Virus record (IMG/VR): IMGVR_UViG_3300035490_000040
Coordinates: 1-21,491 of that record
Length of the DNA: 21,491 nt
Reading direction: 5' to 3' (one strand)
Origin: a virus
The notes beneath the pieces were generated by a model that was not told where the DNA came from, searched no databases, and saw only the letters and a list, made by a program, of their open reading frames with translations. Both the position numbers and the translations under genes were made by a program. Position 1 is the first letter of the stretch. Each line of letters starts with the position of its first letter. Positions 1 through 21,491 of the stretch are shown here, piece by piece.

Positions 1-1303
1 AGCAAACACATGTGATATGACCGCTGGAACATATTCCGGTATTTGTCCATGTTATCGATCCCACTTGGCAAGCTAAAATATCCCATACCGCCATACAAGG
101 CAAGGCTAAAGTTACATAAGCATCTTGATCAGTTTGAAGTTGAGATAAAGAACTGTACGGCTGAGAATAAGAATAGCAACAAGCACAATATGATCCTGCT
201 CCGCATACCCTGTAACAAAGAGCATAACATACTGTACCATAATAATAACAACTTGGAGCGGTATTGTTGCACCAAAGTTGAAACTTGAATCTTACTGTAG
301 TGGCGCAAGTGCAAGCCTCAGTGCATACTGATGTACCAAAATTTACGTCTTTGATACATTCAACTCCGGTAGAATTATAGGTGGTAAGCAAAGCATGAAC
401 CGCAAAACAATATCCATAGCATTGGGACGAGGTATAATAACAAAGCGGAGGATCAGAATATACCTGCCATCCTTGGCATTGAGTAGGAGCACAAGCGTTA
501 TAACTCATAAGGCTTTTTATTGAAACCGCTACTTGAGGAGAGGATGTCCACCCGTTTAATACTACAAAACAGCCGGTATTGGCTGTACCCGAACAAAGGC
601 GTTTGACATAAGGAACATTGCCAAGCTGATCATGGAATTGGAGTGCTCCCGAATAAAGATAAGAATAATTGCAAGAACAATTAGGATCCTGCAATGTTAT
701 ATCAGAAGCTAAAACATGTCCATTGCATACCTGAAATTTTAAAGAATTACATGTATCATATCCGCGAATACCATAACCATCGAATACGGTTCGAGAAGCA
801 TTAGAGCATATCACCATGCCATTTACACAATCGTAAGTCATGGAAGCATTGCTATCGCCAATGCCTACGCCATAGGTATCATTGGCATAGTTAAGGAATC
901 CGTTAAGATTCCCCATTCTCATTTGAGTGGTAATACCGTTATTCCACGGTGTACCATTCTGGGTGACTACGCTGACGTAAGGAGCATAAGGATCAGAGGC
1001 GGTCATGTATACCATTCCGGCCCCGGCATTACCGTAATTTACTACCGTTGTACCTTTAGTCCATGCCGGCAAAGTATTGGCAGTATATGTATTAGCCATA
1101 TCTCTTTCGACGCAATAGGCCGGAGCGCAATTAGATTGACAAACCGTCATCCATTCATCATTTACGCCGTCTTTCATGCGAAGGATATTACCGGGGAAAA
1201 AGGCGGTATTACCTTGAATGGTTAAAGTATCTTGATTAGATACAAGACAATTCCCTGCGATATCTATGAGTTGATTCCCCGCGTTGTCGATGATGTAATT
1301 CAT
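1..1303 (-). CDS. Cysteine-rich tail fibre / host-recognition protein, partial (no stop in window)
   Basis: The frame from ATG 1303 stays open to base 1, giving 434 residues with no stop, so the C-terminus lies outside the window. Residues about 25-160 (DTLTIQGN, GNILRMKDG, NDEW, TKGTTVVNYG, MVYMTASD, MRMGNLNGF, YGVGIGD) resemble the module that in many phage fibre proteins directly follows the kind of segment ending the 2367-3287 protein (SSVGGNFLV, DSDVL); I infer this is the second half of a split fibre. From residue about 160 the protein becomes Tyr/Cys-rich. I count 34 Cys in 434 residues, many as CxC, CC or CxxxC. No Shine-Dalgarno sequence precedes the ATG, only AT-rich sequence. There is no signal peptide. 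The role of the Cys-rich part is unknown: disulfide-stabilised receptor-binding domain or metal binding are possible. Confident that it is coding, moderately confident of the fibre call. Confidence 0.82.
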   Translation of the reverse strand, partial: MNYIIDNAGNQLIDIAGNCLVSNQDTLTIQGNTAFFPGNILRMKDGVNDEWMTVCQSNCAPAYCVERDMANTYTANTLPAWTKGTTVVNYGNAGAGMVYMTASDPYAPYVSVVTQNGTPWNNGITTQMRMGNLNGFLNYANDTYGVGIGDSNASMTYDCVNGMVICSNASRTVFDGYGIRGYDTCNSLKFQVCNGHVLASDITLQDPNCSCNYSYLYSGALQFHDQLGNVPYVKRLCSGTANTGCFVVLNGWTSSPQVAVSIKSLMSYNACAPTQCQGWQVYSDPPLCYYTSSQCYGYCFAVHALLTTYNSTGVECIKDVNFGTSVCTEACTCATTVRFKFQLWCNNTAPSCYYYGTVCYALCYRVCGAGSYCACCYSYSQPYSSLSQLQTDQDAYVTLALPCMAVWDILACQVGSITWTNTGICSSGHITCVC

Positions 1304-1407: not shown

Positions 1408-2364
1408 TCATTGGTTTTTTAATCCATACAAATAAAAATTCCCCGAGGCTATATTGCCGTCATCGCAGTAAATGCCAACAGAATCAATCGCCACAGGTTG
1501 CGTATCTACCTCTCCGCCACCCTGCATATAAACATAATTTCCAGAAGCCCACAACCCGGACGCAGACCAGCAGGCATATTTATGAGTATCGGTAAGTGTA
1601 ACATCGAAAATAGTTACTTCAAAATTAGCACGTTGATTTGCCCCTGTTCCCAAAACCTCTGAAGCAGAACTTATTACCCAAGCTACATCGGATGTGCTAC
1701 CCCCAACACCAGAAGCGGAGCTTGTCCACCGCCATGTACCATGCTTATACCCGGTAGTAATAAATCCTGAACCGGTAGATACTCTGACGCATAAATTAGT
1801 GCCATTAATGATAGGCACCACATTATTTATAACAATCTTAAATGCGCTATAATTTGCCACTGCAAAACCCGTGAATATAACGTTTACTGCATTTGACGGT
1901 GCAGCAGAACCCAGAAGAATATAAGCCGAACCTGCGCCTCTGTCCACATATGCGGTAGTCGCAACCTTAGTAGAATTATCTCCTGCACTTTGTGTCGTCG
2001 CAGTCGTGCCATTAGCTAACGCTCCAGCGCCTCTGTCCACATATGCGGTAGTCGCAACCTTAGTAGAATTATCTCCTGCGCTTTGTGTCGTCGCAGTCGT
2101 GCCATTAGCTAACGCTCCAGCAGCGGCGTTACTGAAATCACTAGCCATTATTGTTTTGCTGGTAGATGGAAATGTCATCGTAGTCCCCGCAGTCGCAGAA
2201 ATTCCCATTCCGCTATCGGCCGGCAAACCGTTAGCGTCAAAAACCACAGCATCTCCCGCGACCGCCGCAGGAGTACCTGTGTGCGCTGCGGTAGAATTTA
2301 TCGCATGAACTTTTACGATGTGAAGATCAGAACCGGTTAAATTAGCATGATAATCATTACCCAT
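1408..2364 (-). CDS. Tail fibre-like protein with internal 31-residue tandem repeat
   Basis: A 318-residue protein rich in Ala, Thr, Ser and Gly, with no signal peptide. The N-terminal part (MGNDYHANLTGSDLHIVKVH, then VAGDAVVFDANGLPADSG) resembles the start of fibre or receptor-binding proteins in many environmental phages. Residues about 82-144 carry two nearly identical 31-residue units of the type LANGTTATTQSAGDNSTKVA ending in AYVDRGA; TTATTQSAGDNSTKVATTAYVD is a common phage fibre repeat motif. The C-terminal 170 residues are beta-rich and end GNFYLYGLKNQ, like a small receptor-binding domain. The start at 2364 is set by AGGGAG, which lies over the stop region of the fibre gene upstream. 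It sits between two halves of what looks like one fibre protein. Function by family resemblance only. Confidence 0.8.
   Translation of the reverse strand: MGNDYHANLTGSDLHIVKVHAINSTAAHTGTPAAVAGDAVVFDANGLPADSGMGISATAGTTMTFPSTSKTIMASDFSNAAAGALANGTTATTQSAGDNSTKVATTAYVDRGAGALANGTTATTQSAGDNSTKVATTAYVDRGAGSAYILLGSAAPSNAVNVIFTGFAVANYSAFKIVINNVVPIINGTNLCVRVSTGSGFITTGYKHGTWRWTSSASGVGGSTSDVAWVISSASEVLGTGANQRANFEVTIFDVTLTDTHKYACWSASGLWASGNYVYMQGGGEVDTQPVAIDSVGIYCDDGNIASGNFYLYGLKNQ
1934..2119 (-). repeat. 93-bp tandem duplication inside a fibre gene (two copies)
   Basis: Copies lie at 1934-2026 and 2027-2119 and are in frame (31 codons each). They differ at one base (a at 1987, g at 2080), which is silent (AGT/AGC, Ser). 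Near identity indicates a recent duplication or continual homogenisation, as expected for repeats that tune fibre length. Confidence 0.95.
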
Positions 2365-19275: not shown

Positions 19276-20109
19276 CTAATACCCCGTAGAGGCATCAGCC
19301 GTTAAACGCTTACGGAACACCACCCGCGCCGGCCGTATAACTTCATAAGTTTTAGTATTAAACAATACGAGAAGGCCGTAGCGCAAGGCGTCCTGGCCGT
19401 GCTCGTAGAACCCGTCTTTTTCCGGGCTCTCTTCGTCCGATTCCGACCGCACATAACCCCCCAAAAATCCGTCTATAAGAATATGGCACTTGGTATCAAA
19501 CTTGATCCTGGCCGCACCATCATATTTAGGCAATAATAGATTACGGACAAGATTAATACCGTCCTTGACCTTGCTTGGCCGGGATTGTATCCGTATCCCA
19601 AACCCCCGAAGGATATCGGCCGTAGTCTTTTCGTTCTTATCCGATTTAGCCCTTACCGCAGGATCCCCGGCGTCCTTAAAGGTATAGCCGGCATAAAGCT
19701 TATCCGACATCTCCAAAACCTGCTCCGCGAACTTGTTAATAACAATATCCGTACCCATCAGCTCATTAAGCACCAAAGGGCTACCTTTCTCGTCGATCTG
19801 GAAGAATACGCAGAAGGGGTGGCGGTAGCCAAAGTCCCAACCGCGGTAGATATCCCGAAAAGGGATGGATTCTAAGGTGGTGACGTGCAGGTCAGACCGA
19901 AACTCAGGGTATACGCGCTTACCGCTAGACCTTGAGAAGTCCAGTTCCATCTCCTGATTCCATATATCGACAATATATCCTTTCTTGGTCGTTAACGCCC
20001 AGGCCTCATCCTTATCCGGATCCGCGGTATAATGCAGCCGCATGACGAGGAAACCGTTCTCGTTACGGTATTTATGTAAGCCCTTACACAATAATTCCGG
20101 TTTAGTCAT
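19276..20109 (-). CDS. terL: Terminase large subunit, nuclease half
   Basis: A 277-residue protein holding the C-terminal RNase H-like nuclease that cuts concatemeric DNA at packaging. Residues 14-36 (YRNENGFLVMRLHYTADPDK) are the linker that normally follows the ATPase domain. Catalytic candidates are D92 in YRGWDFGYRHP, D146/D149 in FKDAGDPA and D240 in EHGQDALRYGL; E116 is a further acidic residue. A complete terminase would have the ATPase domain in front, but here translation begins at ATG 20109 with no ATPase, and the ATPase half is a separate gene at 20988-21491. Only a weak site (AAGAGC) precedes the ATG. The two halves probably associate as separate polypeptides. Confidence 0.85.
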   Translation of the reverse strand: MTKPELLCKGLHKYRNENGFLVMRLHYTADPDKDEAWALTTKKGYIVDIWNQEMELDFSRSSGKRVYPEFRSDLHVTTLESIPFRDIYRGWDFGYRHPFCVFFQIDEKGSPLVLNELMGTDIVINKFAEQVLEMSDKLYAGYTFKDAGDPAVRAKSDKNEKTTADILRGFGIRIQSRPSKVKDGINLVRNLLLPKYDGAARIKFDTKCHILIDGFLGGYVRSESDEESPEKDGFYEHGQDALRYGLLVLFNTKTYEVIRPARVVFRKRLTADASTGY

Positions 20110-20120
20110 GCTCTTTGCTC

Positions 20121-20213
20121 TTACCCCTTGTAGAGGTCTGCCGGCGGCGATTTGGCCACGAGAGGCAAGGCGGCCAAGACGAAAATCAGGCTAGTGAGTA
20201 TGGTTTTAACCAT
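20121..20213 (-). CDS. 30-residue peptide with signal-like segment
   Basis: MVKTILTSLIFVLAALPLVA followed by KSPPADLYKG: a positively charged start, a hydrophobic stretch of about 15 residues and a possible signal peptidase I site after LVA. Its ATG overlaps the stop region of the 139-residue gene, and its stop lies 11 bases before the nuclease ATG. No ribosome site of its own, so coupled translation would be needed. It might be an exported peptide or just an inserted coupling frame. Confidence 0.5.
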   Translation of the reverse strand: MVKTILTSLIFVLAALPLVAKSPPADLYKG

Positions 20214-20625
20214 CAAAATTCATTAAAAAGGTATCGTATTCCTTAAAATCAACGCCTAAATGTTTACACCGTAGTTTTTCCAGCTTCTTAGCGAATTGAT
20301 GCTGGGCATAATAAGGCGCCGCAGGGGAATCGCCTGGATCAGCCTCCGGTCCATACACCCCTGCCAAGCGGTCTTTCTCGAACTGGACATCAAAGGCGGT
20401 AACTTGAGCATCCGTGACACCGGCCAGCCCGCAAAGGAACTGCTCATCCACTTCGTGCATAGCCACAAGAAATTCATATATTTTATTCTTCATATCAGAA
20501 ACCTTAACGACATCAACCTTTTTACGTTTACCTTTAGCTGCAGGCCATAATTCCGTAATCCAGTCTCCGACTGTTTCATACCTATGCTCTTTGTGTGGAA
20601 TTGTTTTAATGAATATGTTTAGCAT
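20206..20625 (-). CDS. Conserved-type phage hypothetical protein
   Basis: A 139-residue soluble protein (MLNIFIKTIPHKEHRYETVG, then DWITELWPAAKGK). The pattern of an N-terminal PHKEHRYETVGDW, a middle MKNKIYEFLVAMHEVDEQFL and a C-terminal DPGDSPAAPYYAQHQFAKKL is familiar from many phage genomes without known function. AGAAGGA precedes the ATG. It lies inside the segment that separates the two terminase halves. Function unknown. Confidence 0.7.
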   Translation of the reverse strand: MLNIFIKTIPHKEHRYETVGDWITELWPAAKGKRKKVDVVKVSDMKNKIYEFLVAMHEVDEQFLCGLAGVTDAQVTAFDVQFEKDRLAGVYGPEADPGDSPAAPYYAQHQFAKKLEKLRCKHLGVDFKEYDTFLMNFDG

Positions 20626-20798
20626 TCCTTCTCCCTCCTCTGTAACTCTTCCAACAAAGACTGTACCCCCGTAGAGGGTTTGAACGTAGCCATGACCAAT
20701 CGTATAAGTACCCGGGAGAATAACTGTCGATCGCTCATCTTGGATAGTAATTCTTTTTCCTTGACCGGATCTGGATTAGCACGTTTCTCATCAACCAT
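20619..20798 (-). CDS. Hypothetical small charged protein
   Basis: A 59-residue helical protein (MVDEKRANPDPVKEKELLSK, ending LLEELQRREKEC). AAGGAG precedes ATG 20798, and the stop of the previous gene overlaps this ATG as TAATG, so 20798 is preferred to the in-frame start at 20831. It overlaps the next gene by seven bases. No family recognised. Confidence 0.62.
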   Translation of the reverse strand: MVDEKRANPDPVKEKELLSKMSDRQLFSRVLIRLVMATFKPSTGVQSLLEELQRREKEC

Positions 20799-21004
20799 TA
20801 TTTTATCTCCTTTTTTACCGGCTTCCACCACGCTTCAACCCATGTCTGCCCATTAGGCTTATCCGGTTTAATATCCACAAGTTTATAAAGACTACCGCCC
20901 TTGCCATAGACCAGAGTATTAAGCTTACCGCAAAGATCAGCAATGTCGTAATAGCATAGCTTAGTAATAGTAAAATCTTTAGAATCTTCATTCATTAACA
21001 TCAT
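20798..21004 (-). CDS. Hypothetical small protein after the terminase ATPase half
   Basis: A 68-residue protein (first MMLMNEDSKDFTITKLCYYD, ending EAWWKPVKKEIK), overlapping the ATPase-half stop by 17 bases. An internal ATG at 20995 is an alternative start; neither has a good ribosome site. Tyr/Trp-rich with no membrane segment. Its last codons hold the ribosome site of the next gene. Unknown function. Confidence 0.58.
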   Translation of the reverse strand: MMLMNEDSKDFTITKLCYYDIADLCGKLNTLVYGKGGSLYKLVDIKPDKPNGQTWVEAWWKPVKKEIK

Positions 21005-21491
21005 GCACTAGTTTATAAAACAGGTTCCTTTTCCCATTCGGGGTAGAGACACCTACCATCTTGGGCAAGACGATAAATCTACCTTCGCCGAGGTCAAGCT
21101 TGGTCTTGCGCCCATCCAGGGTAGGCTTTAAGCTGGCAAATACCTGTTCCGATCGCTCCTGGAAGGCCATCTCATCACACAACACGCTTGACGAGGTATA
21201 TTGTCTTACTGCGTCTGAATCCTGCGATACACCATGTATGCAACTATTCTTCTTGGGAAAGGTAAGAATAGCCGGTTGAGTGCTGCGCTTAAAGCCATAT
21301 TGTAATTCCTTAGGAAGGTGCTCATGTATAAACATAGCCCGGGAGAGTAAAGATAGCTGAGAGGACCAGCCGGCATCATCTTCCTTCTTCGATATGAAGA
21401 AGATATATTGACCGCTATACTTCATGGCAAGCCATAGGTTAAGAGCTACAAACAGCCAAGACGCCATCATCTGCCGGCTCTTAACGACAAT
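20988..21491 (-). CDS. terL: Terminase large subunit, ATPase half (5' end outside window)
   Basis: The frame is open to the window edge, giving 167 residues with the N-terminus missing. At the edge IVVKSRQMMASW matches the Walker A region of terminases (K-S-R-Q with following helix). Walker B is SSVLCDE with D106-E107 (numbered from the edge), and the coupling motif is STPNGKRNLFY at 149-158. This is the packaging ATPase that drives DNA into the head. It then stops (VHDVNE) where intact terminases run on into the nuclease domain, found separately at 19276-20109. The protein continuity either side and the short residual ends suggest that little or nothing was lost. Confidence 0.87.
   Translation of the reverse strand: MVVKSRQMMASWLFVALNLWLAMKYSGQYIFFISKKEDDAGWSSQLSLLSRAMFIHEHLPKELQYGFKRSTQPAILTFPKKNSCIHGVSQDSDAVRQYTSSSVLCDEMAFQERSEQVFASLKPTLDGRKTKLDLGEGRFIVLPKMVGVSTPNGKRNLFYKLVHDVNE

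What the first reader, a model, noticed from the sequence alone, without database searches (positions are those of the whole stretch)
19276..21491. Large terminase split into separate ATPase and nuclease genes with four small reading frames between
The ATPase gene stops a few residues after the coupling motif (STPNGKRNLFYKLVHDVNE). The nuclease gene starts with the linker that normally follows it (KYRNENGFLVMRLHYTADPD). Together they would make one nearly complete terminase, but 878 bases with frames of 68, 59, 139 and 30 residues lie between. All motors I know of this family are normally single chains, so this is either a working two-chain motor or an intron-like insertion that is spliced out. 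The intervening frames look like ordinary phage genes, not a homing endonuclease.
Basis: partly seen in the sequence, partly recalled or inferred. Interest (0 to 1): 0.82.

Follow-up and report, generated by a model that had tools for sequence, protein, structure and literature searches.

The report
Two-chain DNA packaging motor in phages
This phage, and a large group of uncultured relatives, make the enzyme that pumps DNA into the virus head from two separate proteins instead of one, cut at a fixed place inside the motor part, so the motor very probably works as an assembly of two chains.

Summary
Window 20988-21491 (-) encodes a TerL ATPase core and 19276-20109 (-) a TerL nuclease, with 878 bases and four small co-directional frames between. 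It is neither an assembly error nor an intron. The same split recurs in more than 80 IMG/VR contigs, down to about 25-35% identity. The gap runs from a 34-base overlap to 3.9 kb: often only ATGA or 1-2 bases, elsewhere unrelated genes. Selection, intact motifs and a relative split under genetic code 25 argue that both chains function. No second terL lies in any record examined. The split is not at the usual ATPase-nuclease linker. The second chain carries a conserved new N-terminal element, the last ATPase strand, the lid, the linker and the nuclease. Five fused lineages contain that same element internally: re-fused genes, or descendants of a fused ancestor. Best explanation: an obligate two-chain packaging motor whose lid and nuclease are supplied on a separate polypeptide. 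A two-gene TerL is already published for Arthrobacter cluster AY phages, but cut elsewhere (at the linker). I rate this a new variant of a known kind. No biochemistry is available.

The parts
20988..21491 (-). ATPase chain of the large terminase (ASCE core; 5' end cut off by the contig end, complete 259 aa in L003)
   Evidence: phrog_2 E 9.3e-8; profile match to T4 gp17 ATPase E 2.5e-6; 100% identical chain in L003
21459..21488 (-). Deviant Walker A region VVKSRQMMAS; KSRQ invariant in 20 relatives
   Evidence: read directly; alignments A3, A5
21171..21185 (-). Walker B VLCDE with catalytic Glu; an intein sits next to this motif in L006 and L172
   Evidence: read directly
21036..21047 (-). Motif III / coupling motif STPN, 15 codons before the stop
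   Evidence: read directly; aligned to T4 gp17 TPNG
20798..21004 (-). Intervening frame 1, 68 aa, overlaps the ATPase stop; replaced by another frame in L004/L005, and preceded by unrelated sequence in L001
20619..20831 (-). Intervening frame 2, 70 aa (59 from ATG); a relative (59 aa) is the only gene in the gap of L006
   Evidence: no Pfam match, only weak PHROG hits
20206..20625 (-). Intervening frame 3, 139 aa, no known family; absent from L005, L006, L007
20121..20216 (-). Intervening frame 4, 30-31 aa, hydrophobic; weak candidate gene
19276..20109 (-). Second terminase chain, 277 aa: N-terminal element, last ATPase strand, lid, linker, RNase H-like nuclease
   Evidence: phrog_2 E 1.5e-8; D6E TerL profile match E 1.3e-6; AlphaFold2 pLDDT 83.9
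20053..20109 (-). N-terminal element MTKPELLCKGLHKYRNENG, predicted beta-hairpin, conserved in split relatives, absent from plain fused TerLs
19927..20052 (-). Last ATPase beta-strand (residues 21-25, in FLVMRLHYTAD) and lid/linker region (to about residue 61) carried on the nuclease chain
   Evidence: profile alignment to D6E TerL; secondary structure; ATPase domain of the fused relative L131 runs to about residue 260, split site at about 213-218
19336..19926 (-). RNase H-like nuclease domain, residues 62-258; Asp92, Asp149, Asp240 invariant
   Evidence: VIA Z 20.7, rmsd 2.2 over 172 residues to D6E TerL 234-417; invariant columns of A8

Best explanation
The large terminase of this phage is an obligate two-chain enzyme. 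Chain 1 (ATPase, about 230-270 aa) holds the P-loop, Walker B and coupling motif. Chain 2 (about 275-330 aa) holds a conserved N-terminal beta-hairpin element, the last strand and lid of the ATPase domain, the linker and the RNase H-like nuclease. Both genes lie in one co-directional gene run and are translated separately. Inferred: chain 2 docks on chain 1 through its N-terminal strands and lid, rebuilding the ordinary TerL protomer without a peptide bond, and five such pairs form the packaging motor. Small genes can sit between the two because the halves need not be joined. Shown: the split, its conservation, selection on both chains, absence of another terL in the records, the position of the split in the fold. 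Inferred: co-assembly, stoichiometry, DNA packaging.
For: (1) The same split at the same site in independent contigs: 19 lineages and 71 of 77 classifiable loci of a wider scan. (2) The gap varies freely: ATGA overlap in L079/L081, 1 base in L096/L113, 129 bases in L007, 878 here, 3,902 in L108. (3) Both chains keep their motifs: KSRQ and DE invariant, STPN region conserved, Asp92/149/240 invariant. (4) Selection: window versus L003 ATPase, synonymous difference 0.129, non-synonymous 0.000 over 167 codons; L003 versus L005 dN/dS 0.05 (ATPase) and 0.15 (nuclease). (5) No other terL in the window's record or in nine related records of 14-49 kb. (6) Five fused lineages (L120; L191; L195/L198/L201; L217; L221) carry the chain-2 element internally behind a variable linker; L191 nests in a split clade at 100/98 support. 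(7) L173 uses TGA as glycine and is split at the same site, with glycines at conserved positions in both halves under that code. (8) AlphaFold2/Foldseek place the second chain and the fused relative in the TerL fold.
Against: No expression, interaction or packaging data. All split members are uncultured contigs, none shown complete, so a second, very divergent terL outside a contig is not strictly excluded. The tree does not settle whether one split was followed by re-fusions or there were several splits at one site. The docking role of the N-terminal element is inferred from conservation and a single-chain prediction of moderate confidence there (pLDDT about 77).
Confidence: 0.88

Rival explanations
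1. The two halves are exons of one terL; the 878 bases are an intron (group I/II or an unknown type) removed from the RNA.
For: terL genes are known intron targets: in Jug phages terL is split into 2-3 fragments by group I introns, with RNA-read evidence of splicing (PMC12363816).
Against: No intron family in Rfam up to E 1; no homing endonuclease in the gap; gap of -4, 1, 2, 5 or 6 bases in many relatives, and unrelated gene content elsewhere; chain 2 starts with its own initiator codon and has an N-terminal element that plain fused TerLs lack.
Confidence: 0.03
2. The halves are joined after translation by a split intein, or during it by frameshifting or ribosome hopping.
For: Continuous inteins do occur in this family, in both chains.
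Against: The ATPase ends 15 codons after the coupling motif, and the N-terminal element of chain 2 is only 19 residues in the window, so there is no room for intein halves. The frame relation differs between lineages (0, 1 or 2) and complete genes with stops lie between.
Confidence: 0.03
3. A decaying terminase in a defective prophage or satellite, with packaging done by a helper's or another terL.
For: The contig is a 21.5 kb fragment, so completeness cannot be judged.
Against: Purifying selection on both chains, deep conservation of the split, intact portal and capsid genes, no second terL in nine related records of 14-49 kb.
Confidence: 0.04
4. Only the ATPase chain drives translocation; chain 2 is a separate cutting enzyme used at initiation and termination rather than a stoichiometric part of the motor.
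For: Translocation without a working nuclease exists: the phi29 packaging ATPase packages unit-length DNA without cutting (established knowledge, not tested here). The two genes can lie 3.9 kb apart.
Against: Chain 2 carries the ATPase lid and last strand, which chain 1 lacks, so chain 1 alone would be an incomplete ATPase; fused forms of the same family exist.
Confidence: 0.1

Closest known systems
Arthrobacter cluster AY phage TerL (BillyTP, PP978841; PMC11920828)
   Same: Large terminase ATPase and nuclease encoded by two separate genes, in cultured phages, so a two-gene TerL is compatible with life.
   Different: Split at the ATPase/nuclease linker: the ATPase chain of 359 aa includes the lid region and the 198-aa nuclease starts at the first RNase H strand. 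The genes are consecutive and overlap. Here the split precedes the lid and genes may lie between.
Intron-split terL of Jug phages (PMC12363816)
   Same: terL reading frame in pieces with other sequence between.
   Different: There, group I introns with RNA evidence of splicing; here no intron and separate start codons.
Large terminases of D6E, T4 (gp17), P74-26 and Sf6
   Same: Same ASCE ATPase, lid and RNase H-like nuclease, in the same order.
   Different: Single chain.
Fused relatives in LCP-89, Electryoneota and Calditrichota MAGs (L128-L134) and L116
   Same: Closest single-chain relatives of this deviant-Walker-A family.
   Different: One chain of 440-500 aa; the helix after motif III runs straight into the strand without the extra element.

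Membership tests
Large terminase (TerL), superfamily level | ASCE ATPase with Walker A, Walker B with catalytic Glu, coupling motif | tested here: met
   Motifs read in the sequence and conserved; T4 gp17 profile match E 2.5e-6. The Walker A is deviant (KSRQMMAS, no GK).
Large terminase (TerL), superfamily level | RNase H-like nuclease with conserved acidic triad | tested here: met
   D92, D149, D240 invariant; Z 20.7 to D6E nuclease domain
Large terminase (TerL), superfamily level | ATPase and nuclease on one polypeptide (usual, not universal: cluster AY) | tested here: not met
   Two ORFs with 878 bases between; conserved
Large terminase (TerL), superfamily level | Packages DNA into procapsids | not testable with these tools
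   needs experiment
Arthrobacter AY-type split TerL | Split at the linker between lid and nuclease | tested here: not met
   Here the split precedes the last ATPase strand and lid; BillyTP boundary read
Intron-interrupted terL | Group I/II intron core or homing endonuclease in the gap | tested here: not met
   Rfam search to E 1, Pfam/PHROG of gap ORFs, 4-base overlaps in relatives
Split-intein trans-spliced protein | Intein N and C parts at the break | tested here: not met
   No residues left for them at either terminus

The most novel reading that the evidence does not exclude
A packaging motor in which the force-transmitting lid and the nuclease form an exchangeable subunit separate from the P-loop subunit, so that lid/nuclease units could be swapped, regulated or present in a different number from the ATPases during packaging; this would separate translocation from cutting physically.
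Probability: 0.12. Interest if true: 0.85.

Novelty: new variant of a known kind. Interest (0 to 1): 0.63.

Why it matters
How ATP hydrolysis in the terminase core is passed to the lid and nuclease is a long-standing question, usually studied on single chains where the parts cannot be separated without damage. Here nature has cut the protein between the catalytic core and the lid and kept both pieces through deep divergence, with fused versions for comparison. Separately expressed chains would allow direct tests of lid-dependent ATPase activity, stoichiometry and coupling. It also warns annotators: both halves score weakly, Pfam and NCBIfam give no hit, and such phages may be recorded as lacking terL.

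Tried and rejected
Pfam and NCBIfam gave no family for either half. PF03237 and PF03354 searches of the window's record were empty, so PHROG profiles and session alignments were used instead. tblastn against cultured phages found relatives no closer than about 24-36% identity; the nuclease hits opened (H1, H3, H4, H35) are single-chain, as is H41, found with the ATPase. Literature searches for bipartite or split TerL found cluster AY and the Jug phages only; one query was malformed. One-origin tree: supported at 81/79 without long branches, but with more fused rows at least three label changes are forced, so re-fusion versus repeated splitting stays open. I first read L050-L058 as a second kind of split; it is an in-frame 30-nt insertion with stops, listed under noticed. 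The first DNA pattern for it was mis-spaced and was repeated correctly. dN/dS beyond the closest pairs is saturated. A two-chain complex could not be modelled: the structure tool folds one unchanged protein at a time.

Full report
Observation. On the minus strand the window ends with a 167-codon open frame (20988-21491) and, 878 bases further on, a 277-codon frame (19276-20109); between them lie small co-directional frames of 68, 70 (59 from ATG), 139 and 31 (30 from ATG) codons. Both large frames match PHROG 2 (terminase large subunit), the first to its ATPase part (281-414 of 807), the second to its nuclease part (441-603). Pfam and NCBIfam see neither. The portal gene (Pfam SU10_portal, E 2.7e-25) and a capsid gene lie downstream in the same orientation. 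The window's own record is a 21,491-base virus fragment with only these terminase pieces.

Not an artefact. Independent metagenome contigs (L001, L002, L003, L004, L005) hold the same nuclease gene, 98-100% identical at protein level, with the same start; L008 holds its first 106 codons. Where the contig reaches far enough (L003, L004, L005, L008) they hold a complete separate ATPase gene of 259-268 codons. Window and L003 are 98.5% identical across the whole 2.6 kb.

The split is old and exact. Profiles of both halves run over relatives show separate genes in every lineage near the window: L006 (73% identity in the nuclease), L007 (59%), L079/L081 (61%), L080 (56%), L082 and L083-L086 (48-49%), and in far ones (L095, L096, L108, L110, L112-L115, L118, L136, L137). 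The last viral scan found 268 relatives. Of the 80 listed, 71 are split, 6 fused and 2 show one half only (L096 was counted before). With few exceptions the ATPase stops shortly after motif III (STPNG..NLFY.LVHD) and the second chain resumes at the next strand (FLVMRLHYTAD in the window).

Gap content is free. The genes overlap by 4 bases in L079/L081, L159, L165, L177, L193, L199, L200, L207 and L209; they are 1-6 bases apart in L096, L113, L110, L149, L150 and L162; 129 bases apart in L007, 177 in L006, 331 in L005, 878 in the window and L003, 1,058 in L080. In L108/L109 the gap is 3,902 bases with several genes, among them an FkbM methyltransferase and a family 2 glycosyltransferase. Between near-identical phages the gap is a recombination boundary: window and L004/L008 are 99.9% identical from inside the first intervening frame onward, but 92% in the ATPase. 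L001 carries unrelated sequence where the ATPase end would be.

Not an intron. No Rfam intron model matches up to E 1, there is no homing endonuclease in the gap, and zero-gap members leave nothing to splice. Intron-split terL does exist in Jug phages, with RNA evidence (PMC12363816), so the test was needed. Split-intein trans-splicing is excluded because nothing but terminase residues and a short N-terminal element is present at the break. Programmed frameshifting cannot be general: the frame relation is 0, 1 or 2 in different lineages.

Both chains look functional. ATPase: KSRQ and DE are invariant and the STP(N) region is conserved. Nuclease: D92, D149 and D240 are invariant over 21 split and fused relatives. 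Window versus L003 ATPase: synonymous difference 0.129, non-synonymous 0.000 over 167 codons; L003 versus L005: dN/dS 0.05 (ATPase) and 0.15 (nuclease). L173 is a natural control: under genetic code 25 (TGA = Gly) both halves read open with glycine at conserved places, and they are still separated by a gap with other stops. Searches for another terL in nine related records of 14-49 kb returned only the pieces at these loci (phrog_2) or nothing (PF03354).

Where in the fold. The nuclease-chain profile aligns from its position 24 with D6E TerL from chain residue 196. In D6E the lid follows this strand (Y213, R224) and the linker is 230-241 (PMC5727402). AlphaFold2 of the fused relative L131 (pLDDT 86.7) has its ATPase domain, lid included, matching T4 gp17 102-360 over model residues 17-260 (Z 24.9, rmsd 2.6 over 241 residues). 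The split site corresponds to L131 residues about 213-218, in the loop between the helix at 206-212 and the strand at 219-223. The window's second chain (pLDDT 83.9) has strands 5-8, 11-15 and 21-25, lid helices 35-42 and 47-54, then the nuclease domain from residue 62 (Z 20.7, rmsd 2.2, 172 residues to D6E 234-417). So the break is about 45 residues inside the ATPase domain. Chain 1 lacks the final strand and lid, which makes association with chain 2 likely to be needed for ATPase function (inference).

A conserved new element. Split second chains begin with a short segment of the type (K)G[LIVM]..[WRK].[NT]..[GN][FY], predicted as a beta-hairpin in the window's chain; 56 of 66 sequences pass a simple pattern for it. 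Plain fused relatives (L128, L131, L116) pass straight from helix to strand without it. Seven other fused proteins in five lineages (L120; L191; L195/L198/L201; L217; L221) contain something like it internally, after a variable linker (the match is weakest in L221). L191 lies inside a split clade (100/98) and L221 beside split rows (96/97). These are re-fused genes, or descendants of a fused ancestor that acquired the element before several splits; the tree forces at least three changes but not their direction. In a smaller tree without long branches the split rows form one group (81/79). Either way, the fused forms suggest that the two chains belong to one machine.

Known precedents. Arthrobacter cluster AY phages encode ATPase and nuclease domains of TerL in two consecutive genes (PMC11920828). 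I read the break in BillyTP: the ATPase chain keeps the lid region and the second chain starts at the first RNase H strand. That is a different break in a different TerL family. PHROG also holds several partial TerL families (5653, 10250, 6672, 7579), one of which matches L096 chain 2 at E 5e-20, so fragments of this sort have been clustered before. No paper found in the searched library describes the present group.

Verdict. Observation confirmed; two-chain motor most likely (0.88); intron refuted; new variant of a known kind. Co-assembly and packaging remain to be tested.

Noticed in passing
L050 2607-2639, same insertion in L051, L053-L056, L058 (also held as L140-L142): In a different, single-chain terL family a 30-nt in-frame insertion carries two stop codons and a strong hairpin (GGUUGACC-GAAA-GGUCAAUC, z -4.6). 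It lies exactly between a GGT and the next conserved codon and ends in GGC: it looks like a T4-gene-60-type translational bypass gap, or else a restart at the Met before Walker B. Confined to one small clade.
   Followed up: partly
L173 900-2700: Split terminase written in genetic code 25 (TGA = Gly), pointing to an Absconditabacterota/Gracilibacteria host.
   Followed up: partly
L006:2402-3979, L172:4495-6000, and chain-2 ORFs of L156, L161, L163, L169, L175, L197, L210: Intein-like insertions repeatedly in catalytic motifs: next to Walker B in chain 1, before the third catalytic Asp or at the second in chain 2 (LAGLIDADG match in L006; sequences).
   Followed up: partly
L108 2346-6247: Several genes, including an FkbM methyltransferase and a family 2 glycosyltransferase, lie between the two terminase genes.
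   Followed up: no
L003:206-1060, L081:4254-4928: Proteins with a zinc-ribbon-like N-terminus upstream of the ATPase; weak match of the L081 one to a small terminase family (phrog_10899, E 0.003): candidate TerS.
   Followed up: no
window 2-1303 (-): Very cysteine-rich protein (434 aa, open at the contig end), unusual for a phage tail-region protein.
   Followed up: no
window 1408-2364 (-): Tail-type protein with a directly repeated segment GALANGTTATTQSAGDNSTKVATTAYVDR.
   Followed up: no
window about 20829-20983, versus L004 and L008: The start of the intervening region is a recombination boundary: the ATPase halves differ by about 8% in DNA while everything downstream is 99.9% identical.
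   Followed up: partly
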